A stretch of DNA of 64,000 bases from Desulfuromonadales bacterium (GTDB lineage: Bacteria > Desulfobacterota > Desulfuromonadia > Desulfuromonadales > Geopsychrobacteraceae). This document shows, piece after piece, positions 13,225 to 63,471 of the stretch; the stretch's first letter is position 1; each line of letters starts with the position of its first letter. The notes under the pieces were generated by a model. The model searched no databases and had not been told where the DNA came from. It saw nothing but the letters and a program-made list of their open reading frames with translations. The position numbers and the translations under genes are program-made. Location: positions 1-64,000 of the forward strand of contig JAHYIY010000007.1 in the NCBI GenBank assembly GCA_019429255.1, read 5' to 3'.

Positions 13225-13235
13225 GAAGAATATAT

Positions 13236-13391
13236 GCAACTATTCAGTTGCTATCCTTCGCGCAGGGCCGGGGATCCTATGGCAAGGGTGTTTGTCGCCA
13301 TGGACGGCGACAACAAGCGGTCATGGATGACCCAACGGGAAACAATCGCGTCCCTTGACATAGGATTCCCGACCCGGTGCTGAATAGATAC
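13236..13391 (+). mobile_element. MITE copy A, between hrcA and grpE
   Basis: This 156-bp non-coding element has terminal inverted repeats (GCAACTATTCAG at the left; the right end reads GTATCTATTCAGCACC on the other strand). It is flanked by an exact 8-bp direct repeat, GAATATAT (13228-13235 and 13392-13399). Internal arms GGGGATCCTATGGCAAGGG and CCCTTGACATAGGATTCCC pair with two mismatches, and the centre has hairpins TTGTCGCC/GGCGACAA and GGTCAT/ATGACC. It matches copies B, C and D over nearly its whole length. The left duplication begins three bases after the hrcA stop, and the right one lies just upstream of the grpE ribosome site. Confidence 0.92.
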
Positions 13392-13420
13392 GAATATATA
13401 TCAAAAGGAGATGAGGTACT

Positions 13421-14020
13421 GTGGGCAAGAAGACCGACCAAAGTGCAACAGATCAGGTTGCAGACAATCCTGTCGAGGTTGTTCATCCGGATGCTGAACC
13501 CCTCGCGGAAAATGCGGATTTAGAGCAGCAGTTGGCGCAAGCTCTCGAAGAGAAACAGCGGCTGCATGAACAGTATGTAAGAACCCTGGCCGACATGGAC
13601 AATCTTCGTAAAAGAACAACCCGCGAAAAAGAAGAGATCGCCAAGTTTGCTAACGAGGGGCTTCTGCGCGATATTCTGCCGGTTATCGATAACCTCGAAC
13701 GGGCCTTGGAACATTCCGACAAGGCGGCTGAAAGCGGCGGATTGCTTGAAGGAGTGCGCATGACCCTGACCCAGTTCACTCAGGTGCTCAGTCGTTTCGG
13801 CGTGGCACCGATTGATGCGGCCGGCAAGCCTTTTGATCCCGCTTTTCATCAGGCCATGGGGCAGCTCGAATCTGCTGACCATCCGGTTAACACGGTCATG
13901 GTTGAAATGCAGAAGGGTTATCAACTTAATGAACGTTTGCTGCGGCCAGCTTTTGTGCTGGTGGCCAAGTCGCTGACAGAAAAGCCTTCAGCAGCCGACG
14001 ATGACAACAAAACTACCTGA
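13421..14020 (+). CDS. grpE: Nucleotide exchange factor GrpE
   Basis: A 199-residue co-chaperone that releases ADP from DnaK. It has an acidic N-terminal tail and a long coiled coil (about residues 25-75) with the conserved ADMDNLRKRTTREKEEI segment in part. The C-terminal beta domain contains NTVMVEMQKGYQLNERLLRPAFV in part. The start is GTG, with AAGGAG 10 nt and GAGG 4 nt upstream. The MITE ends 29 bp before the start, so grpE must be reached by read-through of that element or from an unseen promoter. Confidence 0.96.
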   Translation: MGKKTDQSATDQVADNPVEVVHPDAEPLAENADLEQQLAQALEEKQRLHEQYVRTLADMDNLRKRTTREKEEIAKFANEGLLRDILPVIDNLERALEHSDKAAESGGLLEGVRMTLTQFTQVLSRFGVAPIDAAGKPFDPAFHQAMGQLESADHPVNTVMVEMQKGYQLNERLLRPAFVLVAKSLTEKPSAADDDNKTT

Positions 14021-14056
14021 TATCAGGACAAAAAGCTCTAGGGAGGAAACAACATC

Positions 14057-15964
14057 ATGGGTAAAGTTATTGGTATTGATTTAGGAACCACCAACTCCTG
14101 CGTTGCCATTATGGAAGGTGGCGAGCCGGTTGTTATTGCCAACTCGGAAGGATCACGCACCACTCCGTCCATGGTCGCATTCACCGAGTCGGGTGAGCGT
14201 CTGGTCGGCCAACAGGCCAAGCGTCAGGCGGTCACCAATCCGGAGAATACGCTGTTTGCCATCAAGCGTCTGATCGGCCGCAAGTTCAGTTCAGAGGCCG
14301 TGCAAAAAGACATGAAAATCAGCCCCTTCGAAATTATTGAGGCGGACAATGGTGATGCCTGGGTGCAGGTGCGCGACAAAAAATACAGTGCCCAGGAAGT
14401 TTCTGCCATGGTGCTGCAGAAAATGAAGCAGACCGCTGAGGACTACCTCGGGGAAAAGGTCACCGATGCGGTCATTACCGTGCCGGCGTACTTTAACGAT
14501 TCCCAGCGTCAGGCTACCAAGGATGCCGGTAAGATTGCCGGACTCAATGTGTTGCGCATCATCAACGAGCCAACCGCGGCGTCCCTGGCCTATGGCCTCG
14601 ACAAAAAGCAAGAAATGACCATCGCCGTCTTTGACCTCGGCGGTGGTACCTTTGATGTGTCAATTCTCGATCTGGGCGATGGGGTCTTCGAGGTCAAGTC
14701 GACCAACGGCGATACCTTCCTGGGTGGTGAGGATTTTGACCAGTTGATCATCGACTATGTCGCCAATGAGTTCAAGAAAGATCAGGGCATCGATCTACGG
14801 AACGACAAGATGGCCCTGCAGCGCTTGAAGGAAGGCGCTGAAAAGGCCAAAATCGAGTTGTCTTCATCGATGGAGACCGACATTAACCTCCCCTTTATTA
14901 CTGCCGATCAGTCGGGACCCAAACATCTGAACATTAAACTGTCGCGCTCCAAGCTCGAAAGTATCTGCAGCGGGCTGCTCGACAAGCTGGTTGGCCCCTG
15001 TAAAACGGCTCTGAAGGATGCCGGTCTGTCGGCCAGCGATATTCAGGAAGTTGTCCTGGTCGGTGGCATGACGCGCATGCCTGCGGTTCAGGAACGGGTC
15101 AAGGAAATATTTGGCAGAACGCCGAGCAAAGGGGTCAACCCGGATGAAGTGGTCGCCATTGGCGCGGCCATTCAGGGTGGGGTTCTGACCGGCGATGTCA
15201 AAGACGTCCTGCTTCTTGACGTGACTCCTTTGTCGCTGGGAATCGAGACCCTGGGTGGCGTTATGACCAAGCTGATCGAGAAAAATACGACGGTTCCATG
15301 CAAGAAGAGCCAGGTGTTTTCCACCGCTGCCGACAACCAGCCGGCGGTTTCGGTTCATGTCCTCCAGGGCGAACGAGAGATGGCCAATGACAACAAGACC
15401 ATCGGTAACTTTGAACTGGTTGGTCTGCCGCCGGCACCGCGCGGTGTACCGCAGATTGAAGTAACCTTCGATATCGACGCCAACGGCATTCTCCACGTAT
15501 CGGCCAAGGATCTGGGCACCGGCAAAGAACAGTCGATCCAGATCACCGCATCCAGTGGTTTGTCTGATGATGAAATTCAGCAGATGGTTAAGGATGCCGA
15601 GCTCCATGCCGGCGAAGACAAAAAGAAGCGTGAATTGATCGAAGCTCGTAACCAGGCGGATGGTCTTGCTTACACGACGGAAAAATCCCTGGCTGAGCAT
15701 GGCGAAAAAGTTGACAGTGCCACCAAGGCAAAAATCCAGGAAGCCCTGGACGACCTGAAAAAGGCGATTGAAGGGGACGATGCTGAGCTTATCAAGAGCA
15801 AGAGCGAGACCCTCGCCCAGGCTTCTCACAAGCTTGCTGAAGTGATGTATTCCCAAGGTAAGGAAGATGCGGGCGCCGCCGGCAATGAAGGGGCGGCAGC
15901 TGAAAGCCCAGTCAAGGATGATGTGGTTGAAGCCGAATTCGAGGACCTTGACGAGAAGAAATAA
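14057..15964 (+). CDS. dnaK: Molecular chaperone DnaK (Hsp70)
   Basis: A 635-residue Hsp70. The ATPase domain begins [17 protein letters not shown] and includes the second phosphate loop [11 protein letters not shown]. The interdomain linker [12 protein letters not shown] leads into the substrate-binding domain. The acidic C-terminus ends with the [11 protein letters not shown] tail typical of proteobacterial DnaK. A strong AGGGAGG site precedes the ATG. It follows grpE by 36 bp and is separated from dnaJ by a terminator-like hairpin. Confidence 0.98.
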
Positions 15965-15979
15965 ACTGCTAACCGGGAT

Positions 15980-16023
15980 CGGACGCCGACGTTGAAAACA
16001 ACCATTCGGCGTCCGCCTTTTTT
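15980..16023 (+). terminator. Intrinsic terminator (or attenuator) between dnaK and dnaJ
   Basis: The arms CGGACGCCGA (15980-15989) and TCGGCGTCCG (16006-16015) form a perfect 10-bp GC-rich stem followed by CC and six T residues. It lies 16 bp after the dnaK stop and 18 bp before dnaJ. It probably terminates most transcripts and sets DnaJ below DnaK. Confidence 0.9.
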
Positions 16024-16040
16024 ATGTCTGGATAATTATT

Positions 16041-17153
16041 TTGGCAAAACGTGATTATTACGAGATCCTTGAAGTCAACCGTAACGCCAGCGAAACGGAA
16101 ATAAAAAAAGCCTACCGGCGGCTGGCGGTACAATACCACCCGGACAAAAACCCCGGCAATAAGGAAGCGGAAAACAAATTCAAGGAGCTTTCCGAAGCCT
16201 ACGCGGTTCTGTCTGACCCTCAGAAACGGGCAACCTATGACCAGTTCGGTCACGCCGGCGTCAACGGCGCCGGAGGCTTCTCCGGGGGGGGGTTCGATTT
16301 TGGCGGCGCGCCTTTTGAGGACATCTTCGGCGACATTTTCGGCGATATTTTCGGCGGCTCGCGCCGCGGGGGACGGGGGCGGCGCGGCGACGACCTGCGC
16401 TACAACCTGACCATCAGCTTCGAAGAAGCGGCATTTGGTGCCGAGAAGAAACTGCAGTTGCCACGCAGTCAGCCATGTGACAGTTGTCAGGGCAGCGGTG
16501 CCCGTGCGGGTACCTCACCGCAGACCTGCTCGACCTGTCGCGGTGCCGGTCAGGTGCGCTATCAGCAGGGGTTCTTTACCATGACCCGCCCTTGCCCGGA
16601 TTGTCATGGTGAGGGCAAAACCATTAAAGATCCGTGCCCCGATTGTAAAGGCAGTGGCCGGGTCAAGCAAAAACGCACCCTGCCCCTCAATGTCCCGGCC
16701 GGCGTGGAAAATGGCACCCGCCTCAAGCTTAGCGGTGAAGGAGAAATGGGTAGTCAGGGTGGTTCGCCCGGTGATCTGTACGTAGTGATCAGCGTCAAAA
16801 AACATCCGATCTTCGAACGCGATGGCCAGAATGTGATCTGTGAGGTGCCGATTTCTTTTGCCCAGGCCGCCCTTGGTTGCGACCTCGAGGTTCCCACCCT
16901 TGAAGGTCGTGTCAATCTCAAGGTTCCGACGGGCACCCAGAGCGGCAAGATTTTCAAGCTGTCGGGCAAAGGGATTGTCGCCCTGCAGGGCTATGGACGT
17001 GGCGATCAGCTGGTGGTGCTGCGGGTCGAGGTTCCCACCAGGCTCAACGCCCGCCAGAAGGAATTACTGGAAGAGTTTGCCAAGGCCGGCGGCGAAGAGA
17101 TCCACCCCCAGGGGAAGGGTTTTTTTGATAAGGTGAAGGAGCTGTTCGACTGA
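16041..17153 (+). CDS. dnaJ: Co-chaperone DnaJ (Hsp40)
   Basis: A 370-residue type I J-protein. The J domain at residues 1-70 contains the HPD tripeptide (YHPDKN). A Gly/Phe-rich region follows, then four zinc-binding repeats [24 protein letters not shown] and CPDCKGSG, and the C-terminal substrate domain. The start appears to be TTG ([12 protein letters not shown]). There is no strong Shine-Dalgarno upstream, and a terminator precedes it, so expression may be weak. It stimulates DnaK ATPase. Confidence 0.96.
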
Positions 17154-17192
17154 CATTTTCTGTTGGCGTGGTGTGATGATCAGGGAGTACCG

Positions 17193-19031
17193 ATGAAGCG
17201 CATAGCTTTTGTGATTCTCTTGCTGTTTGGCCTGTGTTTGTCAGGGCTGTCACCGGTGGTCGCCGCTGCCGGTTTTGAGCGCGGGCAGGAGCTCTATCAG
17301 TTGGGGCGGCACGATCAGGCCCTGGCGGTACTGCGTGATCACATCCGCAATGCTCCTGAAAACCTTCAGACTGCCCGCGCCTATGCCCTGATCGGCAGAA
17401 TTCTGACCGAACGGCAACAGTATCCCGATGTCATTCTCTACCTGCAGCGTACCCCTGCCGTATTGCGCAGCCCAGATATCGAGTTGCTCCATGGCAATGC
17501 CCTGGTTGCCACAGGCAACGTTGCCGAAGGGCTGCGTATGTTGCAACCCTTGATCGGCGAGACCCTGGCCGCGACTGATCAACAGCGTTTATTCCAGGCC
17601 CTCGTCACCGCTGCCCTGGCGCAAAACCAGTCATTGTTTGCCCTGTATTATCTGCAACAGGAGTTGGCTATCGGCGTTGACTCGCAGATGGTTTTTGCGC
17701 GCGCGCGGCAGCTGCTGCAGAATCATCTGTCTGATACCGAGTTGAACGAAGCGGTCTTCATGTGGCAGGGCACTGAAATCGGTCAGGATGCGCTGCTGCA
17801 ACTCGCCCGACGTGCGCTGGCGCGGCAGAATCCGCAAGGGGCCAGAGGGCAGCTGGAAAAGCTGTTTGCGATTGGTGTTCCTTTCCCCTTCTGGCAGGAA
17901 GCAGAAGATCTGCTGCAACGCACACGGGAGGATGGTTGGCTCAACCGCAACACTGTTGGCGTGCTGCTCCCCCTGTCCGGGCCCTATGCCTCCTATGGCG
18001 AGTTGGTAAAAAATGGCCTTGAGCTGGCGCTTAAAGAACACAACAAGGCGCGTTTCCCCGTGCGTTTTGTCTATCGTGATAGCGCTGGTAATGTGCCGGT
18101 TAAGCGCTTGGTCAGTGGACTGGCCAACGAAGACCGGGTGATCGGCATCATTGGTCCATTGCTCAGTGCCGATGCTCTGGAAGCGGCGCGCGAAGCACAA
18201 CGTCAGATGGTGCCACTGCTGGCGCTGGCGCAGACCGAAGGGTTACCCCAGGTTGGCAACTTTATTTTTCGCGATACGGTCACCGCCGAGCAGCAGGTCA
18301 AGGCGCTGGTGAGTTATGCCATGGCTGATCAGCGGATCAGTTTTTCGGTATTGCGCCCGCAAAATCGTATCGGTCAACAGATGACGCAACTGTTCGAAAC
18401 GCTGGTGCGCCGCAGCGGCGGCGAACTGGTTGATGTTGTCAGTTACCCGGAGGGAACCACCGATTTTCGTGACCAGATTGAGAACTTGCTCTGGTCGAAT
18501 CGCAGTCGTCCTATTGCCGAAGAAAAAAGTGGCGGGATGCAACCTCCCGAATACCCCTTGCCCCCCTTCCATGCCCTGTTTATCCCCGATTTTGCTGAGA
18601 ATGTCAGCCTGATTGCACCGCAGTTGATGTTTTATGGAATCAAGGATGTGCTGCTGCTCGGTATCAACGGCTGGTATTCACCGGAGTTGATTAACCGTGC
18701 CGGGCGTTTTCTCGATAACGCGGTCTTTGTCGAAGCCTTTTATGCCGATAGCCGCAACCCCGAGGTACGGAGTTTTGTCGAGCTGTTTCGCAGCGCCTAT
18801 CGAGAGGAACCAAGTATTCTCGAGGCTCAGGCCTTTGATGCAGCCAGCCTGCTGCTGGCAACGATTGATCGCCCCGAAGTGGGTAATCGTGACGATCTGC
18901 GGATCGCGCTGCTGCATCTGGATAACATCCGTGGGGTGACCGGTACCAGAGGCTTTGATCTGGAAGGGGAGGCGATTAAAGAGCTGAATCTGCTTGGGGT
19001 GCAGCGCGGTCGTTTGGTGCAAAGGCTGTAG
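17193..19031 (+). CDS. LppC/LpoA-like protein with TPR and periplasmic-binding-type domain
   Basis: A 612-residue exported protein with an N-terminal signal peptide (basic MKR, hydrophobic core to about residue 25, VAAAG cleavage region). The next 230 residues are helical and TPR-like. From about 255 onward it has a type I periplasmic binding fold (VGVLLPLSGPYASYGELVKNG in part). This domain order is that of penicillin-binding-protein activators (LpoA/LppC), although the cysteine of a lipobox is not evident. ATG 17193 follows GGGAG by 5 nt. It lies 39 bp after dnaJ in the same direction. The link to cell-wall synthesis is inferred from the family. Confidence 0.8.
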   Translation: MKRIAFVILLLFGLCLSGLSPVVAAAGFERGQELYQLGRHDQALAVLRDHIRNAPENLQTARAYALIGRILTERQQYPDVILYLQRTPAVLRSPDIELLHGNALVATGNVAEGLRMLQPLIGETLAATDQQRLFQALVTAALAQNQSLFALYYLQQELAIGVDSQMVFARARQLLQNHLSDTELNEAVFMWQGTEIGQDALLQLARRALARQNPQGARGQLEKLFAIGVPFPFWQEAEDLLQRTREDGWLNRNTVGVLLPLSGPYASYGELVKNGLELALKEHNKARFPVRFVYRDSAGNVPVKRLVSGLANEDRVIGIIGPLLSADALEAAREAQRQMVPLLALAQTEGLPQVGNFIFRDTVTAEQQVKALVSYAMADQRISFSVLRPQNRIGQQMTQLFETLVRRSGGELVDVVSYPEGTTDFRDQIENLLWSNRSRPIAEEKSGGMQPPEYPLPPFHALFIPDFAENVSLIAPQLMFYGIKDVLLLGINGWYSPELINRAGRFLDNAVFVEAFYADSRNPEVRSFVELFRSAYREEPSILEAQAFDAASLLLATIDRPEVGNRDDLRIALLHLDNIRGVTGTRGFDLEGEAIKELNLLGVQRGRLVQRL

Positions 19032-19051
19032 GGCTTGGCGGTTTATGGGGT

Positions 19052-20116: not shown

Positions 20117-20143
20117 GTTTATCTCGCATCCGGGGAAACCGGG

Positions 20144-29172: not shown

Positions 29173-29346
29173 AACAGTCAGAGCGAATTTGTTAATCGCC
29201 TTGCCGATTGTGACACGGCCTATGAATCTTACACCGGCGCGATTCTGCGTCCCGCGCAGCTCAAACTGGAATGCGTTGTGGACGGTCCCCTTTGCGACAT
29301 GGCCGAAGAGTTTATTGCTAACGCCTGGGCTGCCATTAAGGCCTGA
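29173..29346 (+). pseudogene. Orphan C-terminal coding fragment
   Basis: A 57-codon frame, closed upstream by stop codons and without a start, ends at the TGA at 29344. Its residues include RPAQLKLECVVDGPLCDMAEEF in part and AWAAIKA at the end. The composition looks like genuine protein, not noise, but I do not recognise the family. It is best read as the remnant of a gene whose 5' part was lost. MITE B sits exactly at its stop codon. Confidence 0.45.
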
Positions 29347-29347
29347 T

Positions 29348-29502
29348 GTAACTATTCACTGCTGTCCTTGCGCAGGGTCGGGGTTCCTGTGGCAAGGGTG
29401 TTTGTCGCCATGGATGGCGACCACAAGCGGTCATGGCTGACCCAACGGGAAACAATCGCGTCCCTTGACATAGGATCCGAGGAGCCGGTGCTGAACAGAT
29501 AC
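29348..29502 (+). mobile_element. MITE copy B
   Basis: A 155-bp element with GTAACTATTCACTGC at the left and a right end reading GTATCTGTTCAGCACCGG on the other strand. Flanking 8-mers GGCCTGAT (29340-29347) and CGCCTGAT (29503-29510) agree at seven positions, as a target duplication with one later change. It is nearly identical to copy C (in inverted orientation) and shares the central block with A. Its 3' module (GGATCCGAGGAGCCGG) differs from that of A and D. The left duplication spans the stop codon of the preceding fragment. Confidence 0.9.
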
Positions 29503-29654
29503 CGCCTGATTTTTTTTCTTTTCCCTTTAGCAGCACCGATGCCTATCTGCTAGACTTCCCAACAGAACACATCTGTTTTTTTTGTTTCCACCTGAGCAAT
29601 GATCCTATTCGCCTTGGTAGGCGTGGGTGTCGTTGACAGCGCGGAGTTTCTCAT

Positions 29655-32638: not shown

Positions 32639-32793
32639 GTATTTGTTCAGCACCGGCTCTTCGGATCTTATGTCAAGGGACGCGATTGTTTCCCGTTGGG
32701 TCATCCCTGACCGCTTGTTGTCGCCGTCCATGGCGACAAACACCCTTGCCACAGGAACCCCGGCCCTGCGCAAGGACAGCAGTGAATAGTTAC
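32639..32793 (-). mobile_element. MITE copy C, upstream of the SAM riboswitch
   Basis: A 155-bp copy in inverted orientation. On the minus strand it begins GTAACTATTCACTGC. The flanking 8-mers AATTGCTG (32631-32638) and AATTGTTG (32794-32801) match at seven of eight positions. It is the closest relative of copy B, sharing the GGATCCGA-type 3' module. The left duplication starts at the last base of the cysK stop codon. Confidence 0.9.
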
Positions 32794-32833
32794 AATTGTT
32801 GTAACGCCTGTCGGTGGTTTGACCCCGGCAACA

Positions 32834-32945
32834 TCTCATCAAGAGTGGTGGAGGGACAGGCCCTGAGAAACCACAGCAACCGGTTTGTTACCAGCGAACG
32901 GTGGGTGCTAAATCCTGCCCTGACGCCTGTCAGGGGAAGATGAGA
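32834..32945 (+). promoter_or_regulatory. SAM-I (S-box) riboswitch
   Basis: The conserved core is present in order: P1 arm TCTCATC, AAGAG, GGTGGAGGGAC, GGCCCTGAGAAACC, GCAACC, GGTGCTAAATCC and the closing P1 arm GATGAGA. P1 pairs exactly (32834-32840 with 32939-32945). The aptamer binds S-adenosylmethionine and should turn off the downstream operon by termination. Confidence 0.97.
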
Positions 32946-32976
32946 AAGTGACCCGGTTTCGCGCTTTGATAGAAGG

Positions 32977-43000: not shown

Positions 43001-43318
43001 GTCACCGGGCACCTTTTGGGCATAGCTTTACCATATCCAGTCGTAATTATTCAGCTGCAGTCCTTCGCCCAGGGCCTTTGGATCCTGTGGAAAGGGTTTT
43101 TGTCGCCATGGACGGCGACAAAAAGCGGTCATGGAAAACGAAAAGCGTCCCTTGATATAGGATTCCCGACCCGGTGCTGAACAGCTACACTCAGTCTAGC
43201 ATAAGATGACTGAGGAGTGACCAGAGGAAGAAGGATAGAGCGACAGGAAATTTTTTTGCTGGTCTGCTATTCTTGTGAGTGTCACAGGATTTTTTCACTA
43301 TCTCCTGAAGAGGATACG
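43001..43318. other. 318-bp divergent intergenic region
   Basis: The stretch lies between DUF2905 (minus) and DUF748 (plus). It contains MITE copy D (43043-43188) and about 130 bp of leader for the plus-strand gene. I see no clear promoter pair. The frame continuing upstream of 43319 is open by chance and lacks a start with a ribosome site. Confidence 0.6.
43043..43188 (+). mobile_element. MITE copy D
   Basis: A 146-bp, more diverged copy beginning GTAATTATTCAGCTGC, with a right end reading GTAGCTGTTCAGCACCGG on the other strand. The segment that holds TGACCCAACGGG in the other copies is replaced by a shorter A-rich stretch. Flanks ATCCAGTC (43035-43042) and ACTCAGTC (43189-43196) agree at six of eight positions, consistent with an old duplication. 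The 3' module GGATTCCCGACCCGG is shared with copy A. Confidence 0.85.
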
Positions 43319-46300
43319 ATGCCCCACTGGTTAAAAATAACATGGATCACTGTTGCTGTTGTTATCGGTTTACTGCTGCTGTCGATGCTGATTGTCCCCT
43401 GGCAGCTGCAAAAACAGTCGCAGCAGTGGATTGCTACCCACACCGAGCGAACCTTAAGTTATGAACGGGTCTATTTCAACCCTTTCACCCTCAAGCTTGA
43501 GTTGGGTGGAGTTGTCCTGAACGAACCCGACGGGGACGATCCCTTTGTCTCATTTGAGCGGGTTATGGTTTCGGTCAGTCCTTCTTCCCTCTGGCGACGG
43601 GCGCTGATTCTTGGGCGCGTGGAGATCGACAGCCCCTACCTGAATATCGCATTACTGGGCGAACAGCACTATAATTTCTCAGACTTGGTTACCCTGTTTG
43701 CGGCGGATGAGGCGGCGCAACAGGAACCGCTGGCGCAGAAACGTCCTTTTCATTTTTCGTTGAACAATATTGTGGTGACCGGGGGTGCCCTCGATTTTGT
43801 TGATTTCACCTCCGCGACACGTGCCCATCACCGGATCCGCCAGCTGGAGTTGAGAGTTCCTTTTGTCGGCAATATTCCTTTTCTGCTCGACCAATATGTT
43901 CAGCCGAGCTTAAGCCTGCAGCTCAATGATGCGGTCATCTCTGCCCGTGGCCGACTCAAACCCTTCCATGATTCCGTTGAAACCCAGTTGTTTATCAATT
44001 TGCGTGATGTCGATCTGCCCTTTTATGCCTACCACTCCCCCGTGCCTCTGCCGGTTGTGGTCGCAAGTGGCGTCCTTGATGTCGATCTGGACCTGTCTTA
44101 CCGGATTTCCCGCAGCGCAGAGCCGCAGTTGCTGATAGGAGGAATGCTGCTGCTTGATGATCTGCGGGTGCAGGATCGGAACCAGCAGCCGCTATTCGAT
44201 CTGCCGCTGCTGGCGATCGATCTCGATTGGGCCGATCTGTTGCGTCGGGATGTGAACCTGGCCATGGTGGAACTCCATGATCCGCAGTTGTGGATCAGTC
44301 GTAACGCCGCCGGCCACTGGAATTTTGAAGCCCTGATGAGTTCAGCCCCGGCAGCGTCCGATCCGGAAGAAGACCACAATCAGAATGAGGAAGAAACTAC
44401 AGCCTTGTTGTTCAATGTCGAGCGGATAACGATTTTTGACGGAGCGGTTCATTTTTACGACGCTTTTGTTCAGGGACCGGTTGATGAAAGCTTACAGGCG
44501 ATCAATCTCGATATTTGGCAGCTGAGCAATCATCCGCAGCAGCGTACCGCTATCGATCTGACCCTGCAGAGTGCCCGCCAGGTCAACCTTGATGTCAGTG
44601 GGGAAGTGACGCTCCAGCCGTTGTCTGCCGCCTTTACTGTCGGGGTTGACAGCATTCCCTTGCAACCCTACTACCCCTATCTGGAGTCCTGGTTGACCGA
44701 ACCAGTGCTGGGGGTTGTCGACCTTGCTGCACAGATCGATTACAGCCCGCAGACCGATGTGCAGCTGTCCCAGGCCAGTGTGCAGCTGCGGGATCTGTTC
44801 ATTCCTTTCACTGCCGAGGATCATTTCAAGCTGGATGAATTGAATCTGATCGGTGGCGCGGCGGATCTGCGTGAGCAGCGCATTAGTGTTGCCGAAATTC
44901 AGTTAAGCGGTGGCGAGGTTGTTCTCACCCGCCTCGCTGATGGGCGTTTTTCACCGCAATTGCTGCTGCGTGAACAGCAACTGGTCGATGAGGTGGAAGA
45001 GGTTGCTGAAGAGATTGTCGAAACGGTAGCTAAGCAACAGTGGGCACTGAGGCTGGGACGTTTTGCCATTGATAACACCCAGGTCAGCTTTACTGATGCA
45101 ACGATGGCGGCAAAGCCGCGCGTTGAACTGAAAAATATCAATCTGGAGTTGCAGGAGCTGCATTATCCTGTCGCGCAAACCAGTCCCTATCGCTTTGCCG
45201 CCCAGATCGGCGAGCAGGGGCGGATCCAAGCCGCGGGGCAACTGGTCTATGCCCCCTTCGAAGTGGCGGCGCAGGTCAATGTCGGTGCTTTCCCCCTGGC
45301 CGATTTCAACGATTTTCTTCCGCCGGAGTACAATCTTGCACTTAATGACGGCTATCTGCACACGGATATCAAGATAGCCGTCAAACAGCATGGCGAGGGC
45401 GTCAGTGGCAGTTTTGCCGGCGATCTTGACCTCACCCACTTTGCCTTGCGTGATCCTGTCGGCAGCGGCAATATGATCGCCTGGGAAGGCTTTGCCATCA
45501 CAGGAATAGACGGGGATATCGAGCCGTTGCGCCTGCATATCCGTGAGCTGGTACTGAATAATTATCTGGCCGCTATTCAGATCACTGCGGATGGACAGAT
45601 GAATCTCACCGGTTTCGGCCCGCCGGCAGCCGATGAAGCGTCAATGGTTACCGTCGCACCCCTGGAGGTCGAAACCGCTTCCGCCAGCGCCCCGGCGGAT
45701 ATCCGCATCGATACGGTGACCCTGCAAGGGGGGACGGTTTCCTTTGTCGACCGTCACCTGCCGGGGGTGTTTTCCACCACCATGTATGACCTGGGTGGAC
45801 GTATCAGCGGTATGCGCTCAAGCGCCGATATGCTCGCCGATGTCGATCTGCGCGGTCGTTTGGAAAATCATTCCCCCTTGACCATCAGCGGCAAAATCAA
45901 CCCCTTGAGTGAGGATTTGTATCTTGACCTGACCATGAGTTTCAAGGATATCGACCTGACCCCCATGACTCCCTATTCGGGAACCTACCTGGGGTATACG
46001 ATCGATCGTGGCAAGCTCAATCTTGACCTGAATTATCACATAGAGCACCAGCAAATCCGCGCCGCTAACCGGGTGATGTTCGATCAGTTTAATCTCGGGG
46101 AAACGGTACAGAGTGACAAGGCGGTCAACCTGCCGATCCGGCTGGCCATCGCCCTGTTGAAAGACCGTAACGAAGAGATTCATCTCAATATTCCGGTTTC
46201 CGGCGACCTGAACGACCCGAACTTCAGCCTGGCCGGCACCATTTTTACTGTATTGCGAAATTTGCTGGTGCGCGCGGCAACGGCGCCTTTTTCGTTGCTG

Positions 46301-46888
46301 ACCGCCATGCTCGGCAGCGACAAAGACTACAGTGGCATCGAATTTGCCCATGGTATTGCCCGTCTGGATGAAGTGCAACAGCAGAAGCTGACGGAGCTGG
46401 CCGGCGTACTCCAGTCGCGACCGGCATTTAATATAGAAATCAGCGGTTTTGCCGATCGCGACAATGACCCGGAAGCCTATCGTCAGGATCGCCTCGAACA
46501 GATGCTCAAAGAAGCACTGCTGCGTAAGCTGCAACGTCAGGGCCAATCGCTTGTGGCGGGAGAACAACCGATTATTAATGACGAAAATTATTCTGAACTG
46601 CTGCTGCAGGTATATGAGGAGGCGACCTTCCCGCGCCCGCGTAATCTGATCGGTATGCTTACCAAACTGCCTGATGAGGAGATGGAGAAGCTGCTGCTGG
46701 CTCATATTGTTGTTGAGCAAGAGCAATTGGCGGATCTGGCGCGCGATCGCGCGTTGGCAGTGCGCAATGCCCTCGAAGTGATTAATGACGAACTGGGGCC
46801 GCGGCTCTTCCTCAAAAAAACGGACATCTTTGCTGCCCCCAAAGAGGGCCCGGTGAGTCGGGTTGAACTGGGGATTGTCCCGAGGTAG
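43319..46888 (+). CDS. DUF748 (AsmA-like) envelope protein with OmpA-like C-terminal segment
   Basis: A 1189-residue protein anchored by one N-terminal helix (about residues 8-30), with the rest predicted periplasmic. It consists of repeated AsmA/DUF748-type beta-rich units (FNPFTLKLELGGVVL, SFKDIDLTPMTPYSG in parts), a shape linked to lipid-transport bridges such as TamB and YhdP. From about residue 1035 a segment resembles OmpA-type peptidoglycan-binding domains (LTELAGVLQSRPAFNIEISGFAD in parts). ATG 43319 has AGAGGAT 5 nt upstream. It is followed 3 bp later by an M23 peptidase gene, so both are probably one envelope operon. The role in lipid movement is inferred. Confidence 0.85.
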   Translation: MPHWLKITWITVAVVIGLLLLSMLIVPWQLQKQSQQWIATHTERTLSYERVYFNPFTLKLELGGVVLNEPDGDDPFVSFERVMVSVSPSSLWRRALILGRVEIDSPYLNIALLGEQHYNFSDLVTLFAADEAAQQEPLAQKRPFHFSLNNIVVTGGALDFVDFTSATRAHHRIRQLELRVPFVGNIPFLLDQYVQPSLSLQLNDAVISARGRLKPFHDSVETQLFINLRDVDLPFYAYHSPVPLPVVVASGVLDVDLDLSYRISRSAEPQLLIGGMLLLDDLRVQDRNQQPLFDLPLLAIDLDWADLLRRDVNLAMVELHDPQLWISRNAAGHWNFEALMSSAPAASDPEEDHNQNEEETTALLFNVERITIFDGAVHFYDAFVQGPVDESLQAINLDIWQLSNHPQQRTAIDLTLQSARQVNLDVSGEVTLQPLSAAFTVGVDSIPLQPYYPYLESWLTEPVLGVVDLAAQIDYSPQTDVQLSQASVQLRDLFIPFTAEDHFKLDELNLIGGAADLREQRISVAEIQLSGGEVVLTRLADGRFSPQLLLREQQLVDEVEEVAEEIVETVAKQQWALRLGRFAIDNTQVSFTDATMAAKPRVELKNINLELQELHYPVAQTSPYRFAAQIGEQGRIQAAGQLVYAPFEVAAQVNVGAFPLADFNDFLPPEYNLALNDGYLHTDIKIAVKQHGEGVSGSFAGDLDLTHFALRDPVGSGNMIAWEGFAITGIDGDIEPLRLHIRELVLNNYLAAIQITADGQMNLTGFGPPAADEASMVTVAPLEVETASASAPADIRIDTVTLQGGTVSFVDRHLPGVFSTTMYDLGGRISGMRSSADMLADVDLRGRLENHSPLTISGKINPLSEDLYLDLTMSFKDIDLTPMTPYSGTYLGYTIDRGKLNLDLNYHIEHQQIRAANRVMFDQFNLGETVQSDKAVNLPIRLAIALLKDRNEEIHLNIPVSGDLNDPNFSLAGTIFTVLRNLLVRAATAPFSLLTAMLGSDKDYSGIEFAHGIARLDEVQQQKLTELAGVLQSRPAFNIEISGFADRDNDPEAYRQDRLEQMLKEALLRKLQRQGQSLVAGEQPIINDENYSELLLQVYEEATFPRPRNLIGMLTKLPDEEMEKLLLAHIVVEQEQLADLARDRALAVRNALEVINDELGPRLFLKKTDIFAAPKEGPVSRVELGIVPR

Positions 46889-54464: not shown

Positions 54465-54560
54465 GGAGGCAGTCAGTAGCCTGGTGGCGCTCACGGTCTT
54501 CAAAACCGCTGGGGGGCGTATCCCGTCCCTGGTGAGTTCGATTCTCATCTGCCTCCGCCA
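54465..54560 (+). tRNA. selC: Selenocysteine tRNA (anticodon UCA)
   Basis: A 96-nt tRNA with an encoded CCA. The acceptor stem has eight base pairs (GGAGGCAG with CTGCCTCC), as in bacterial tRNA-Sec. The anticodon loop is CTTCAAA with anticodon TCA. A long variable arm rich in G and C follows, and the T arm is GGTGAG-TTCGATT-CTCATC. It decodes UGA with SelB and a SECIS element. selA, selB and selD are not in the window and no selenoprotein gene was found here. Confidence 0.95.
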
Positions 54561-58035: not shown

Positions 58036-58165
58036 CTACAATGCGGATCCGCTCGGTAGCGGTGGTGATAACCTGTGCCGCTGCGCTGCAGGGTAAAATG
58101 GCGAGGAATAATAAAATAAGAGTAAGGTGCAGGGCGCGGTAGCTGAATGTCTCGCTGTTAAACAT
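58036..58165 (-). pseudogene. Truncated 5' end of an exported-protein gene
   Basis: An ATG at 58165 with AGGGAGG upstream starts a clear signal peptide ([20 protein letters not shown] and on to CSAAAQ). About 15 further residues follow before the sequence runs into the reverse strand of the SDR remnant. The ribosome site and signal peptide are well preserved, but the body is gone. The end at 58036 is approximate. Confidence 0.65.
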
Positions 58166-58259
58166 GATAAGCCTCCCTGTCATCTTCCTTTTTCGGAAAT
58201 CGGGTGAGGGTCTCCATTATCGCACAGTTGGTCGGTGGCTATGGTCGCAGCTGTGTCAG

Positions 58260-58268
58260 TGGTATAAT
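58260..58268 (+). promoter_or_regulatory. Extended -10 promoter of the AcuI/YhdH gene
   Basis: TGGTATAAT (58260-58268) is an exact extended -10 (TG-N-TATAAT). No good -35 is present, as is common in extended -10 promoters. The leader would be about 60 nt before the AAGGAGG site. Confidence 0.7.
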
Positions 58269-58336
58269 GTGTACTGCCAACATTTTACTTCAACTTTGCA
58301 TAATTGCTTTCGATCACATCTTGTTAAGGAGGTTTT

Positions 58337-59338: not shown

Positions 59339-59369
59339 TGATAATGTGTCAGTGGAGCGGGAGGCGATG

Positions 59370-60911
59370 ATGTTTCGACATCTGGTATGGATGCTGGTGC
59401 TGGTGGTGTTGGTCGGTTGCGCCGTTAATCCGGTCACCGGGCGCAAGGAGCTGACGCTGATCGGTGAGGGGACTGAATTGCAGATTGGTGCTGAGCAGTA
59501 TGCGCCGCTGCGGCAGATGCAGGGAGGCGATTATAGCACCCAGCCGCAGATTACAGCCTACGTCAAGGAAATCGGCGGGCGTCTGGCGGCAGTCAGTGAT
59601 CGTCCTTTGCCCTATGAGTTTCAGGTGATTAACGACTCGACGCCGAATGCCTGGGCGCTGCCCGGCGGCAAGATCGCCATCAATCGCGGTCTGCTGACCG
59701 AGATGCAGAGCGAAGCAGAGCTGGCAGCGGTGCTTGGTCATGAAATTATCCACGCCGCCGCGCGTCACAGTGCCCAGAGTATGCAACGGGGGATGCTGTT
59801 ACAGGGGGCTGTGGTTGCCGCAGCGATGGCGGCAGGCAACAGTGAATATGCCGGGCTGGCGATCGGTGGAGCATCGCTCGCGGCTGGACTGGTGAGTCAG
59901 CAGTACAGCAGGGAGGCCGAACGCGAGGCTGATTATTACGGCATGCTTTACATGTCGCGTGCCGGCTATGATCCCAGCGCGGCGGTTGATCTGCAACAGA
60001 CCTTTGTGCGGTTGTCGGAAGGGCGCCAGAGCAACTGGCTTGAGGGTCTGTTTGCCAGTCATCCCCCATCCCAGGAGCGGGTTGACGCTAACCGGCGTAC
60101 CGTGAGTGAGCTCCCAGCGGGAGGTGAAATGGGGGTAGAGCGTTATCGCCGGGTGCTGGCTCCATTAATTTCTGCGCAAAAAGCCTACGATGCCCATGAC
60201 GAAGGGCGCAAGGCCCTCAATGACAACCGCGCTGATCGTGCCCTGACCCTCGCTGATCAGGCCATTGCCGGGGAGCCCAAGGAAGCCTTGTTCTACGGCC
60301 TGCGTGGGGATGCTTTACGCAAGCAAGGGCGTGAACGCGAAGCGGTAGCGGCGTTCGATCAGGCCTTGCAGCGCCAGCCCGACTATTTCCATTATTATCT
60401 GCAGCGCGGCCTGGCCTATCAGGCGCTTGGGGAGATCAGGTCAGCTAACGCTGATCTGGAGCGCAGCGTCGCCCTGTTACCGACGGCTCCGGCCATGAAC
60501 TCTCTCGGGCAATTGGCTCTTAATCAGGGTAATCGTGCCCGCGCGCTGGAATATTTTACCAGTGCAGCCAGTTCTGACTCAGCGGCGGGGCGGCAGGCCC
60601 ATGCCTCGTTGGTGCGCCTGGACCTGTCCACCAACCCGGAAAAATATCTCAAGCTCGATCTTGCTCTTGATCGTCAGGGGCAGTTGATTGCCCGTCTGGT
60701 CAATCAGACCCCGGTAGCGGTAGGTGATATCACCCTTGAGGTTGGTTACAACGATCAGGCCGGTAAGCGCCGGCAGACCCGTTTGCGCATTGCCGGGCCG
60801 GTCGCTGCCGGAACCACCTATCAGGTGGTCACCGGACTTGGCCCGATCAGCGACCCTGCCGGCATCAAGAACCTGGGCAGCCGCATCCTTGCGGCCCAGG
60901 TTGCAGAGTAA
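59370..60911 (+). CDS. M48-family metalloprotease lipoprotein with TPRs
   Basis: A 513-residue predicted lipoprotein (lipobox VLVGC). The zinc motif is HEIIH in LGHEIIHAAARHS, and the third ligand is in REAEREADYYG. TPR-like helices follow from about residue 270 to 420. This is the BepA/YfgC architecture, periplasmic proteases that maintain outer-membrane protein quality. The ATG at 59370 sits 5 nt after GGGAGG; the ATG three bases upstream is also possible. The C-terminal beta-rich segment is less conserved. Confidence 0.9.
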   Translation: MFRHLVWMLVLVVLVGCAVNPVTGRKELTLIGEGTELQIGAEQYAPLRQMQGGDYSTQPQITAYVKEIGGRLAAVSDRPLPYEFQVINDSTPNAWALPGGKIAINRGLLTEMQSEAELAAVLGHEIIHAAARHSAQSMQRGMLLQGAVVAAAMAAGNSEYAGLAIGGASLAAGLVSQQYSREAEREADYYGMLYMSRAGYDPSAAVDLQQTFVRLSEGRQSNWLEGLFASHPPSQERVDANRRTVSELPAGGEMGVERYRRVLAPLISAQKAYDAHDEGRKALNDNRADRALTLADQAIAGEPKEALFYGLRGDALRKQGREREAVAAFDQALQRQPDYFHYYLQRGLAYQALGEIRSANADLERSVALLPTAPAMNSLGQLALNQGNRARALEYFTSAASSDSAAGRQAHASLVRLDLSTNPEKYLKLDLALDRQGQLIARLVNQTPVAVGDITLEVGYNDQAGKRRQTRLRIAGPVAAGTTYQVVTGLGPISDPAGIKNLGSRILAAQVAE

Positions 60912-60927
60912 TGACTGTCGGTAACTG

Positions 60928-61689
60928 ATGTATTTTTGCGATACCCACATTCACCTGGTCGCCGCCGGTGTGGAGGGGATGGCCGACATATGGGTCGACT
61001 CCGCCGCAGCGGCGGGCATCGATCGCCTGATTCAGCCCGGCGTCAGAAGCGCTGAATGGGATGCGCTGATCTCTTTGGCAGAGCGCCATTCCAGCGTATA
61101 TGCCGCTCCGGGAATTCATCCTCTGTACGCAGATCAATGGGATGACGAGGTGGCCCTGCGGTTAGAAGAATTGACCCGCCATCCTAAGGTCGTGGCCATC
61201 GGTGAAATAGGTCTGGATGCGGTTGTCAGACCTGCGCAGGAGGTTCAGGAACAGGTCCTCCGTGCCCAGTTGCGGATGGCTCTGGATCATGGCTTGCCGG
61301 TGTTGCTTCACTGTCGTCAAAAAAAGGGTGCCCTGCTGGCAATATTGCGTGAATTGGACATCGGTCGGCAGATTGGCGGTGTCTGGCATGCTTTTTCCGG
61401 CGGTTTGCCTTTTGCCCGCGAGTTGGTCGACCTGAAATTTTCTATCGGGGTGGGGCCGATTCTGCTGCGCCGCAATGCGCGCAAGCTATTAGAGGTTGTC
61501 GCCGCCTTGCCGATATCTGCCATCCTGTTGGAAACGGATCTGCCGGATCCGGCACAGGCACCGGAGGAATTGGTTAAGGTCGCGAAAAGAATAGCAGAAA
61601 TTAAAAACCTGACCCTTGATACTGTCGCCAGGGTAACGACAGAAAATGCTCTAAGGTTGTTTGATAAAATTCAGGAAGGCAACAAATGA
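60928..61689 (+). CDS. TatD-family metal-dependent hydrolase
   Basis: A 253-residue TIM-barrel hydrolase. The metal site is complete: DTHIHL, GEIGLD, LLHCRQ, WHAFSG and ETDLPD. TatD proteins are 3'-exonucleases or D-aminoacyl hydrolases depending on the member. No strong Shine-Dalgarno precedes the ATG. The stop overlaps the tcdA start (ATGA), so the two are translationally coupled. Confidence 0.92.
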   Translation: MYFCDTHIHLVAAGVEGMADIWVDSAAAAGIDRLIQPGVRSAEWDALISLAERHSSVYAAPGIHPLYADQWDDEVALRLEELTRHPKVVAIGEIGLDAVVRPAQEVQEQVLRAQLRMALDHGLPVLLHCRQKKGALLAILRELDIGRQIGGVWHAFSGGLPFARELVDLKFSIGVGPILLRRNARKLLEVVAALPISAILLETDLPDPAQAPEELVKVAKRIAEIKNLTLDTVARVTTENALRLFDKIQEGNK

Positions 61690-62480
61690 ACGAACACCGC
61701 TTCAGCCGGATGCAGCTTCTGGTCGGCAAGAAAAGCATAGATTCACTGACAGGGTCTTCGGTGGCCGTCTTCGGTATCGGTGGAGTAGGAAGTTATGCTG
61801 TGGAGGCGTTGGCGCGCGCCGGAGTCGGAAGCCTGACCCTGATCGATTTTGATGAGATCTGCGCCACCAATATCAATCGCCAGATTCATGCCCTGGATAC
61901 GACCATCGGTCGCTCCAAGGTCGAGGTGATGGCTGAGCGCTGTCACCAGATCAACCCCGCTTGTCGGGTGATCCCCAGGCAGGCATTTTATCAGGCTGAT
62001 ACTGCGCCGGAGCTGTTGCCGGCGGGCTACGATTATGTTCTCGACTGCATCGATCATATTACCGCCAAGCTTCATCTGATCGAAAACTGTGTAAAACAGC
62101 GGATTCCGGTCATCAGCTCCATGGGTGCGGCAAACAAGCTTGATCCGACCCAAATCAAAGTTGCCGATATCAGCAGCACGGAAAAATGCCGACTGGCGCG
62201 GATTATGCGCAAAGAGTTGCGGCGACGCGGGATCCATCGGGGGGTACAGGTGGTTTACTCGACGGAAGAATTTCGCCCTTTAAGTGATGAAGCCCATGTT
62301 TGTGCCGACAACTGCATCTGCCCCAATCGTGACGAACAGCGCTGGAGTTGCAGCGACCGCCGTGCGATTCTCGGCAGTTCGTCCTACATACCACCGATCT
62401 TCGGGCTGACCATGGCAGGTGTTGTGGTGCAACAATTGATAGGCGAGACCGGATTAACAGCCGCCGGCAGATTGCAATAA
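61686..62480 (+). CDS. tcdA: tRNA threonylcarbamoyladenosine dehydratase
   Basis: A 264-residue E1/ThiF-like protein with the nucleotide motif GIGGVGSYAVEALARAG and the adenylation-site segment INRQIHALDTTIGRSK. It converts t6A to its cyclic form (ct6A) at position 37 of ANN-decoding tRNAs. The late Cys pair (CADNCICP) may bind zinc or iron-sulfur as in some members. It overlaps tatD by four bases. Confidence 0.93.
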   Translation: MNEHRFSRMQLLVGKKSIDSLTGSSVAVFGIGGVGSYAVEALARAGVGSLTLIDFDEICATNINRQIHALDTTIGRSKVEVMAERCHQINPACRVIPRQAFYQADTAPELLPAGYDYVLDCIDHITAKLHLIENCVKQRIPVISSMGAANKLDPTQIKVADISSTEKCRLARIMRKELRRRGIHRGVQVVYSTEEFRPLSDEAHVCADNCICPNRDEQRWSCSDRRAILGSSSYIPPIFGLTMAGVVVQQLIGETGLTAAGRLQ

Positions 62481-62482
62481 AA

Positions 62483-63370
62483 ATGTCCGGCACTGCGCCC
62501 TTGTGGCAAATCTACATGAAGCTGGCGCTTGCCGCTGTCTTCTGGGGTGGAACCTTTATTTCCGGAAAATTGCTGGCGGCTGAAGTTGCTCCTTTCACTG
62601 CCGCTTTTCTGCGTTTTGCCCTGGCAACGCTGCTGTTGCTGATCTTGACCAGGAGATATTTCGGTCGTTTGCCCGGGATCAATGGTGACGATCTGGTCCC
62701 CTTGCTGTTATTGGGTTTAAGTGGAGTCTTTGCCTACAATGCCCTGTTCTTTAGCGGCTTGATGTGGATTGAGGCCAGCCGTGCGGCGGTGATTATCGCC
62801 AACAACCCGGTAATGATTGCCCTGGGTGCAGCACTTTTTTATGGTGAAAGCCTGACCCTGAAAAAATTCGTTGGCATAGGACTTTCCGTCATTGGAGCGG
62901 TCACGGTTGTCGTGCGTGGTGACTTAGGTCAGATCCTTAGCGGTGGGGTCGGCTGGGGGGAATTGATGATCTTCGGCTGTGTGCTCAGCTGGACAACATA
63001 TTCTCTGGTCGGACGGCGGGTGATGCGGCACTTTTCACCATTGGTAGCGGTTACCTATTCAGCAGCGATCGGGACCTTTCTGCTCTTCCCTTTTGCCTTG
63101 CTGGAAGGAATGTCGACGCGACTGTCCGGCATCAGTGTCGTTGCCTGGGGACATATAGGTTATCTGGCACTGTTCGGAACGGTGCTTGGTTTTGTCTGGT
63201 ATTATCAGGGGATCGTCCGGATTGGCTCGACCCGCGCCGGGCAGTTTATCAATATTGTGCCGTTGACCGCTGTATGCCTGTCGATCCTGTTGCTGGGTGA
63301 GCCATTAACCTGGTCACTGCTGGTTGGTCTGATGTTCGTCAGTGGCGGTTTATATCTGACCAATAAATAA
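62483..63370 (+). CDS. EamA/DMT-superfamily transporter
   Basis: A 295-residue protein with ten predicted helices in two EamA repeats (WGGTFISGKLLAAE and the second repeat beginning near GWGELMIFGCVLSWTTYSL in parts). Substrate is unknown. The ATG at 62483 starts 2 bp after the tcdA stop. Longer frames upstream overlap tcdA and are not conserved. It is convergent with the MFS gene at the window end. Confidence 0.88.
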   Translation: MSGTAPLWQIYMKLALAAVFWGGTFISGKLLAAEVAPFTAAFLRFALATLLLLILTRRYFGRLPGINGDDLVPLLLLGLSGVFAYNALFFSGLMWIEASRAAVIIANNPVMIALGAALFYGESLTLKKFVGIGLSVIGAVTVVVRGDLGQILSGGVGWGELMIFGCVLSWTTYSLVGRRVMRHFSPLVAVTYSAAIGTFLLFPFALLEGMSTRLSGISVVAWGHIGYLALFGTVLGFVWYYQGIVRIGSTRAGQFINIVPLTAVCLSILLLGEPLTWSLLVGLMFVSGGLYLTNK

Positions 63371-63410
63371 GATGGCAGCGGCGCAAAAACTCACCAATGA
63401 CTGTTTGCGA

Positions 63411-63447
63411 GTAACTACTCAGCCCCGATCTCGTGCTGAGCAGTTAC
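63411..63447. mobile_element. MITE copy E, minimal inverted-repeat element
   Basis: A 37-bp element: GTAACTACTCAGC, an 11-bp centre, then GCTGAGCAGTTAC. The arms match at 12 of 13 positions and correspond to the ends of copies A-D. It is flanked exactly by GTTTGCGA on both sides (63403-63410 and 63448-63455). It lies between convergent genes, 40 bp after the EamA stop, and could also form a terminator-like hairpin. Confidence 0.85.
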
Positions 63448-63471
63448 GTTTGCGAAAGTATCAAACAAGAT

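What the first reader, a model, noticed from the sequence alone, without database searches (positions are those of the whole stretch)
13228..63455. A five-copy MITE family with GTAA termini and 8-bp target duplications
Four elements of 146-156 bp (13236-13391, 29348-29502, 32639-32793 inverted, 43043-43188) and one of 37 bp (63411-63447) share inverted ends near GTAACTATTCAGC. Each is bounded by 8-bp direct repeats: GAATATAT exact (A), GGCCTGAT/CGCCTGAT (B), AATTGCTG/AATTGTTG (C), ATCCAGTC/ACTCAGTC (D) and GTTTGCGA exact (E). Repeats with inverted ends plus fixed-length duplications are a direct sign of transposition. From what is known of insertion sequences, 8-bp duplications and ends beginning GTAA fit IS66-family transposases. 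No transposase is in the window, so the elements are non-autonomous. I do not know of a description of this family.
Basis: partly seen in the sequence, partly recalled or inferred. Interest (0 to 1): 0.85.

Follow-up and report, generated by a model that had tools for sequence, protein, structure and literature searches.

The report
Transposon family carrying CsrA-type RNA hairpins
A small transposon family that relies on a transposase made elsewhere has spread to well over a hundred places in this bacterium, and its copies carry a shared folded RNA with two loops of the kind the global regulator CsrA grips, so it may scatter regulatory sites or decoys around the genome.

Summary
The window copies belong to a genome-wide family: 139 hairpin matches at <=3 mismatches, reversed control 0. 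In 26 of 30 loci the flanking octamers agree at >=6/8, versus 0.5% by chance. Pelovirga terrestris has exact empty sites for copy B and for C45:70602. The missing transposase was found in relatives: a single-gene IS66 element of about 1.72 kb, 6 copies in 5 of 136 genomes, each with GTAACTATTC ends.

Pairs covary (27 of 37), and GGA is kept in both loops in 35 of 35 out-of-genus rows. It resembles Rfam TwoAYGGAY (RF01731). One relative exceeds the gathering score; own-genome candidates scored stay below it. TwoAYGGAY is predicted, not shown, to bind CsrA (PMC4333381). The host has csrA.

Best reading: an IS66-mobilised MITE carrying a CsrA-type RNA. CsrA binding is untested. Individual copies appear to drift neutrally and show no orientation bias.

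The parts
13228..13235 (.). 8-bp target duplication, left of copy A (GAATATAT)
13236..13391 (+). MITE copy A, 156 bp, between hrcA (12166-13224) and grpE (13421-14020), RNA in sense; absent at this site in P. terrestris
13261..13379 (+). RNA core of copy A (model R1, 136.3 bits on + strand); hairpin 1 at 13291-13313 (loop AUGGAC), hairpin 2 at 13319-13332 (loop AUGGAU)
13392..13399 (.). 8-bp target duplication, right of copy A (GAATATAT)
29340..29347 (.). 8-bp target duplication, left of copy B (GGCCTGAT)
29348..29502 (+). MITE copy B, 155 bp; exact empty site (single GGCCTGAT) in P. terrestris
29371..29490 (+). RNA core of copy B (R1 120.7 bits); loop 2 mutated to AUGGCU (29429-29442)
29503..29510 (.). 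8-bp target duplication, right of copy B (CGCCTGAT)
32639..32793 (-). MITE copy C, 155 bp, inverted; present at the same site in P. terrestris (150 of 155 bases alike), so older than the split; flanks AATTGCTG / AATTGTTG
32651..32770 (-). RNA core of copy C (R1 119 bits); hairpin 1 at 32718-32740, hairpin 2 at 32699-32712 (loop AGGGAU)
43043..43188 (+). MITE copy D, 146 bp, 28 bp upstream of the AsmA/DUF748 ORF 43217-46888; absent at this site in P. terrestris; flanks ATCCAGTC / ACTCAGTC
43068..43176 (+). RNA core of copy D (R1 80.2 bits); hairpin 1 intact at 43099-43121, hairpin 2 stem lost
63411..63447 (.). copy E, 37-bp core-less element with both family ends, flanked by GTTTGCGA 8/8

Best explanation
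This is a high-copy MITE family of Pelovirga and related genera. It is moved by a single-gene IS66-family transposase that recognises GTAACTATTCAGC-type ends and duplicates 8 bp of target (shown by duplications, empty sites and autonomous elements with the same ends; movement in trans is inferred). Its cargo is a conserved RNA structure: a long basal stem holding two hairpins with A-N-GGA loops, related to or closely resembling the TwoAYGGAY RNA (fold shown by covariation; kinship by Rfam scores). The likely action is that, when transcribed from neighbouring genes, a copy presents a pair of GGA hairpins that one CsrA dimer can bind. Insertions would then add CsrA sites to untranslated regions and, summed over ~139 copies, titrate CsrA (all of this inferred). 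The RNA is maintained in lineages that propagate. Single copies appear to drift after insertion.
For: Mobility: octamers alike at >=6/8 in 26 of 30 loci; empty sites; 6 of 6 partner elements in 5 of 136 genomes with both ends, L096 and L098 with exact duplications; IS66 by NF033517 287.7 bits (cut-off 180) and PF03050 158.2 bits (cut-off 23.1). RNA: 27 of 37 pairs with changes on both sides, 93.0% of cells paired, 0/500 shuffles as high, slid controls 33-49%; on the 32 DNA-found sequences 21 of 37. GGA in both loops in 35 of 35 out-of-genus rows while the N position takes all four bases. G-U outnumbers A-C 41 to 10 outside the genus on the GGA strand (23 to 10 by distinct types, p=0.035), the excess being in the basal stem. 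RF01731 over the full model: 50.9 bits in L077 (gathering 43), and 39.3 bits (E 1e-4) as the best of 19 scored own-genome candidates. CsrA: one csrA next to a fliW-like gene; csrA in 22 of 29 high-quality core-positive genomes vs 27 of 55 core-negative (p=0.015; all genomes 28 of 44 vs 39 of 92, p=0.016; hand-crossed, tested, not corrected for phylogeny).
Against: CsrA binding was not measured, and the prediction for TwoAYGGAY in PMC4333381 is itself computational. No scored own-genome candidate reaches RF01731's gathering score, and 15 of 20 other loci gave no RF01731 match at E<=1. No orientation bias: the RNA is in sense with the upstream gene in 14 of 29 loci and with the downstream gene in 11 of 30. 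Private mutations hit A.GGA positions as often as the rest (1.25% vs 1.26%) and private G-U equals A-C (7 vs 7), so there is no sign of selection on individual copies. The two hairpins themselves show no G-U excess (4 vs 4 outside the genus). The complementary strand of copy B folds about as well (z -2.7 against -2.1). Seven of 29 high-quality core-positive genomes have no csrA match, two of them with 11-12 cores (G001, G091). No promoter or transcript was shown.
Confidence: 0.6

Rival explanations
1. An ordinary IS66-type MITE whose RNA fold matters only for being harmless. A stable, compact RNA keeps insertions between operon genes from disturbing transcription or translation, and the GGA loops do not bind CsrA.
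For: Copy A sits between hrcA and grpE without breaking either ORF; insertion orientation is unbiased; copies appear to drift neutrally after insertion; csrA is not found in 7 of 29 high-quality core-positive genomes.
Against: A merely stable fold does not explain why GGA in both loops stays fixed outside the genus while stems covary and the N position varies freely, nor the match to TwoAYGGAY.
Confidence: 0.2
2. The hairpins act as DNA (cruciform or single-stranded), for example to help the transposase pair the ends.
For: The core is a near-palindrome with stable predicted folds on both strands, it is carried by a DNA element, and the two hairpins show no G-U excess.
Against: Elements with the same ends and 8-bp duplications but without the core exist: E 37 bp, C45:101165 171 bp (absent at that site in P. 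terrestris), L016 414-565 152 bp, and the autonomous 1.72-kb elements. G-U exceeds A-C in the basal stem on one strand outside the genus.
Confidence: 0.1
3. The loops look conserved only because the copies expanded recently from one source; there is no function.
For: Within the genome private mutations are spread evenly over loops and the rest.
Against: Outside the genus stems have changed by compensatory substitutions while GGA is unchanged in 35 of 35 rows. Within the own genome variation at A.GGA (8 of 320) is about 4-fold lower than elsewhere (p=7e-6), although hairpin-1 stem columns are equally low (2.4%). Searching with a model favours conserved loops, a bias only partly removed by the DNA-found set.
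Confidence: 0.1

Closest known systems
TwoAYGGAY RNA (Rfam RF01731)
   Same: Two hairpins with AYGGAY-type loops in a longer basal stem; one relative's copy (L077, G095) scores 50.9 bits over the full model, above the 43-bit gathering score; proposed CsrA binder (PMC4333381, passages read)
   Different: Described from human gut, gamma-Proteobacteria and Clostridiales (PMC2864571, one table passage read); own-genome candidates scored reach at most 39.3 bits; here it lies inside a transposing element with fixed ends, which the passages read do not mention
IS66 family, single-ORF (tnpC-only) members (group label recalled)
   Same: GTAA ends, 8-bp duplications, DDE_Tnp_IS66 transposase in the autonomous partner
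   Different: Ends GTAACTATTC rather than the GTAAGCG of three other IS66 elements of relatives (L050, L051, L055); the window elements have no transposase
CsrB/CsrC/RsmX-Y-Z regulatory RNAs (recalled, and PMC4333381 and PMC4383904 passages)
   Same: Paired stem-loops with GGA in the loop
   Different: Those are sRNA genes with several hairpins; here a dispersed repeat with two hairpins per copy (six in one tandem triple at G000:C13)
Chunjie MITE of Geobacter uraniireducens (seen only through review PMC10969869, passages)
   Same: Multi-copy MITE (38 copies with ends and duplications, 57 partial) with a copy in an operon
   Different: Up to 235 bp; the original paper was not held, so its sequence was not compared

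Membership tests
MITE | short, without a transposase gene, terminal inverted repeats, target duplications, multiple copies | tested here: met
MITE | insertion polymorphism with clean empty sites | tested here: met
   of 9 elements on C45: exact empty site for B and C45:70602; element absent with diverged target at A, D and C45:101165; shared at C and C45:85494; deletion form at C45:113185; E not callable
IS66-mobilised element | same termini as an IS66-family transposase element | tested here: met
   6 of 6 copies of the partner in 5 of 136 genomes; IS66 by NF033517 and PF03050
IS66-mobilised element | 8-bp target duplication | tested here: met
   MITEs: 26 of 30 at >=6/8. Partners: L096 and L098 exact, L095 6/8, none at >=5/8 reported for L097, L099, L100
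IS66-mobilised element | transposase present in the same genome | tested here: not met
   0 PF03050 matches and 0 partner matches in G000; draft genome of 61 contigs. Not strictly required of a MITE
IS66-mobilised element | transposition in trans by that transposase | not testable with these tools
   needs an assay
TwoAYGGAY RNA (RF01731) | score at or above the Rfam gathering score | tested here: inconclusive
   Own genome: not met (best 39.3 vs 43 among 19 scored candidates). Met in 1 of 136 genomes of the order (G095, 50.9); 7 of 136 at E<=0.001
TwoAYGGAY RNA (RF01731) | two hairpins with AYGGAY-type loops in a basal stem | tested here: met
   alignment; loops (here A-N-GGA rather than strictly AYGGAY)
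CsrA-binding RNA | GGA in hairpin loops, in pairs | tested here: met
CsrA-binding RNA | binds CsrA | not testable with these tools
   host has csrA; binding not measured

The most novel reading that the evidence does not exclude
A transposon-borne CsrA system: an IS66 MITE that spreads ready-made paired CsrA-binding hairpins through genomes of this order. Each insertion would plug the neighbouring gene into the CsrA network, or the copies together would act as a distributed CsrA sponge, in bacteria for which the passages I read report only predicted CsrB-type RNAs. Tandem arrays such as the triple copy at G000:C13:2781-3248 (six GGA hairpins, 8-bp spacers) would be newborn CsrB-like RNAs.
Probability: 0.4. 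Interest if true: 0.85.

Novelty: new variant of a known kind. Interest (0 to 1): 0.66.

Why it matters
TwoAYGGAY is a listed RNA motif whose role is only predicted in the passages read (PMC4333381, PMC2864571). For CsrA in Geobacter the passages read (PMC11934962, PMC5568370) cite predicted CsrB-type RNAs only. Finding a relative of this motif as the cargo of a spreading IS66 MITE would account for its dispersal in this order. It also suggests a route by which a global RNA-binding regulator gains targets or decoys by transposition. A binding assay and an RNA-seq run on a cultured species (P. terrestris) would test it directly.

Tried and rejected
Rejected: (1) IS66 transposase in the own genome: none found. 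(2) Other IS66 elements of relatives as the mobiliser: L050, L051 and L055 have GTAAGCG ends. (3) Cis-regulation of neighbours as a general rule: no orientation bias. The gene calls there were crude longest-ORF picks, and many 'overlaps' are small ORFs. (4) Purifying selection on individual copies: not seen. (5) A fixed stand-alone RNA gene shared between species: masked flanks of 19 loci gave no cross-match by blastn; protein-level comparison was not run, and cores without recognisable ends may simply have decayed ends. (6) Rfam at gathering score on the window: only a SAM riboswitch and tRNA-Sec.

Limits: R1 copy counts per genome are capped (26 scored, 9; 19 for RF01731), so they are lower bounds. 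The R1 hits were found with a model that knows the loops and the strand, which favours conserved loops and G-U pairs; its higher score on the GGA strand (136 vs 35 bits) is by construction. One search also returned wrong-strand matches (about 30 of 127, E>=3e-7) and L119; I dropped these by repeating the search at E<=1e-8 with 80 of the 91 sources, leaving out mostly repeat loci (A4, 89 rows, 85 distinct; window rows B and C repeat L001 and L004). The orientation, duplication and private-mutation tests used 29-42 of the ~139 own-genome copies, chosen by similarity to copy B or by the model. The csrA association and the partner association (4 of 5 partner genomes are core-positive, p=0.04) ignore phylogeny. 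The regular expression misfiled six core-bearing copies with mutated hairpins as core-less; by eye only L016:414-565, E and L110:1165-1335 are core-less.

Literature for novelty: ten searches in an open-licence PMC library. No title or abstract start listed describes a MITE carrying TwoAYGGAY or CsrA sites, or this family; most hits were seen as listings only, and not all hits were listed. Passages were read in PMC4383904, PMC4333381, PMC2864571, PMC11934962, PMC10969869, PMC5568370 and PMC11701678. PMC2516098 (Chunjie) is not held.
Full report
WHAT WAS CHECKED. Repeat analysis finds the same four long copies independently. The window lies in a 2.74-Mb draft genome of 61 contigs, G000:C45. A same-genus genome, G003, has a contig (C44) of the same length, 172,680 bases, as Pelovirga terrestris M08fum record NZ_JACWUN010000006.1, which was found by protein similarity. 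I therefore treat G003 as P. terrestris (inference).

FAMILY SIZE AND TRANSPOSITION. BLAST with copy B gives 42 matches in the own genome, with 40 of 178 candidates scored. The hairpin pattern occurs 66+73 times at <=3 mismatches with zero for the reversed control, 61 of them exact. The 13-bp end occurs 167+160 times at <=2 mismatches against 24+18. Both counts point to about 140 elements, roughly one per 20 kb. In 30 loci, 26 have flanking octamers alike at >=6 of 8 (16 exact), against 0.5% for random placements. With ends located automatically, 41 of 42 own rows have both ends at >=9/13, and 36 of these have octamers at >=6/8. Of 1478 random placements, 3 had both ends and 11 had octamers at that level.

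EMPTY SITES. Nine elements on C45 (window plus the rest of the contig, in stretches) were compared with P. terrestris C44. B and C45:70602 have exact empty sites with one copy of the octamer (GGCCTGAT, AAAACAAG). A, D and C45:101165 lack the element, but the target octamer has diverged. C and C45:85494 are present in both species, differing at 5 of 155 and 1 of 143 bases; the flanks are 88% and 92% identical for C, and 94% and 90% for C45:85494. C45:113185 is a 144-bp element here and a 56-bp form there. The site of E is too diverged to call.

THE TRANSPOSASE. The own genome has no IS66 DDE match. Among 60 relatives, 12 have one. One copy, in G008 (L061), is bounded by GTAACTATTCAGT and GCTGAATAGTTAC. 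Its 472-aa protein is IS66 by NF033517 (287.7 bits, cut-off 180) and PF03050 (158.2 bits, cut-off 23.1). Searching with it at E<=1e-30 finds 6 copies in 5 of 136 genomes of the order, 71-100% identical. All 6 have ends beginning GTAACTATTC on both sides, about 1.7 kb apart. L096 and L098 have exact duplications and 13/13 matching ends; L095 has 6/8; none at >=5/8 was reported for L097, L099 and L100. The label 'tnpC-only' is recalled. Three other IS66 elements of relatives (L050, L051, L055) have GTAAGCG ends.

THE CARGO. The interior contains two hairpins, GUCGCC-AUGGAY-GGCGAC and GGUC-ANGGAU-GACC, inside a long basal stem. DNA searches found the core in other genera with different stems. On these 32 DNA-found sequences, 21 of 37 pairs show changes on both sides, with 0 of 500 shuffles as high. 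On 89 rows aligned by the covariance model R1 (85 distinct), 27 of 37 pairs do, 93.0% of cells are paired, and slid controls give 33-49%. GGA is present in both loops in 35 of 35 rows outside the genus. The A before it is present in 29 of 35 first loops (gapped in 6, which are shorter loops) and in 34 of 35 second loops, and the N position is T, G, C, A or absent. In the own genome 33 of 40 copies have both A-N-GGA loops intact and none has lost both. Outside the genus, G-U pairs outnumber A-C mismatches 41 to 10 in cells and 23 to 10 in distinct types (p=0.035). The excess lies in the basal stem (37 to 6), not in the two hairpins (4 to 4). In the genus the distinct types are 19 to 15, not significant. 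This points, modestly, to selection as RNA on the GGA strand, although the complementary strand of copy B folds about as well (z -2.7 against -2.1).

WHAT RNA IT IS. Rfam at gathering scores finds nothing on the elements in the window. At E-value threshold copy B gives TwoAYGGAY at 17.2 bits, E 6.4. Among 20 other loci, TwoAYGGAY matches over the full model in five: L077 50.9 bits (E 2e-5; gathering 43), L071 36.5 (E 0.037), L070 31.4, L040 30.8 and L074 30.8 (E 0.5-0.7); 15 give none at E<=1. Over 136 genomes of the order, 7 have RF01731 matches at E<=0.001, one above gathering. The own genome's best is 39.3 bits among 19 scored candidates, and 14 control genomes give none. So the element is near or in that family, formally below threshold in this genome. 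Gardner and Eldai (PMC4333381, passages read; authors' names recalled) proposed from motif matches that TwoAYGGAY binds CsrA. PMC2864571 (table passage) lists it as a probable RNA, probably not cis-regulatory, while Rfam types it Cis-reg.

DISTRIBUTION. R1 matches 44 of 136 genomes of the order, 16 of 53 genera, with many at the 26-copy scoring cap. In 395 genomes drawn from the phylum 6 match, 5 of them in this order and one outside it weakly (G457, 37.8 bits). Fifteen of 35 out-of-genus cores have both ends at >=9/13 and 9 of these have octamers at >=6/8, so mobility of the core is not confined to Pelovirga. Some cores have no recognisable ends (e.g. L086, L089, L093, L118).

HOW IT LIKELY WORKS. 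Shown: the ends, duplications, empty sites, IS66 partner and conserved fold. Inferred: transcription by readthrough and CsrA binding. The genome has one csrA match, between a flgL-like and a fliW-like ORF (neighbour names recalled from their sequences). This is like the arrangement reported for Geobacter (PMC11934962, passages read). Among high-quality genomes csrA is found in 22 of 29 with the core and 27 of 55 without (crossed by hand; test); 7 of 29 are exceptions, two of them with 11-12 cores. Against a fixed cis role, orientation to neighbours is unbiased. Against selection on each copy, private mutations are as frequent in A.GGA (4 of 320) as elsewhere (1.26%). All variants together are fewer there (8 of 320 against about 9%; p=7e-6), as also in the hairpin-1 stem (2.4%). 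The fold is therefore kept in the lines that spread, not visibly in each inserted copy. Core-less elements with the same ends and octamers (E, C45:101165, L016:414-565) suggest that the core is not needed for movement, although E may be a deletion after insertion.

VERDICT. The MITE interpretation is right and now tied to a specific IS66 lineage. The unexpected part is the cargo, a TwoAYGGAY-like RNA with paired CsrA-type loops. It is a new variant of known kinds (MITE, TwoAYGGAY). No title or abstract start listed in the ten searches made describes the combination, in an open-licence library only.

Noticed in passing
G000:C13:2781-3248 (L030:1501-1968): Three family copies in tandem, separated by exact 8-bp AAATAATG spacers, starting just after an ORF's stop codon in sense: six GGA hairpins in about 470 bp, like a newborn CsrB-type RNA.
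   Followed up: partly
window 13225-13420: Copy A lies between hrcA and grpE, an insertion absent at this site in P. terrestris.
   Followed up: partly
G000:C45:101165-101335 and L016:414-565: Elements of 171 and 152 bp with the family ends and flanking octamers (7/8, 8/8) but unrelated interiors: possibly other cargoes of the same transposase.
   Followed up: no
G003:C44:160212-160267 against G000:C45:113185-113328: The same insertion site holds a 144-bp element here and a 56-bp form in P. terrestris.
   Followed up: yes
own contigs C19, C35, C44, C55 (starts) and C43 (end): Family copies lie at contig ends, so the repeat probably breaks the assembly and the copy count is a lower bound.
   Followed up: no
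window 32833-32946: SAM riboswitch (RF00162) on the + strand about 40 bp from copy C.
   Followed up: no
window 54465-54556: Selenocysteine tRNA gene (RF01852); in G006 (L043) a tRNA-Sec also lies next to a family element.
   Followed up: no
G457:C2:18328-18467 (L119): Weak core-like match (37.8 bits) outside the order, the only one outside it among 395 phylum genomes.
   Followed up: no
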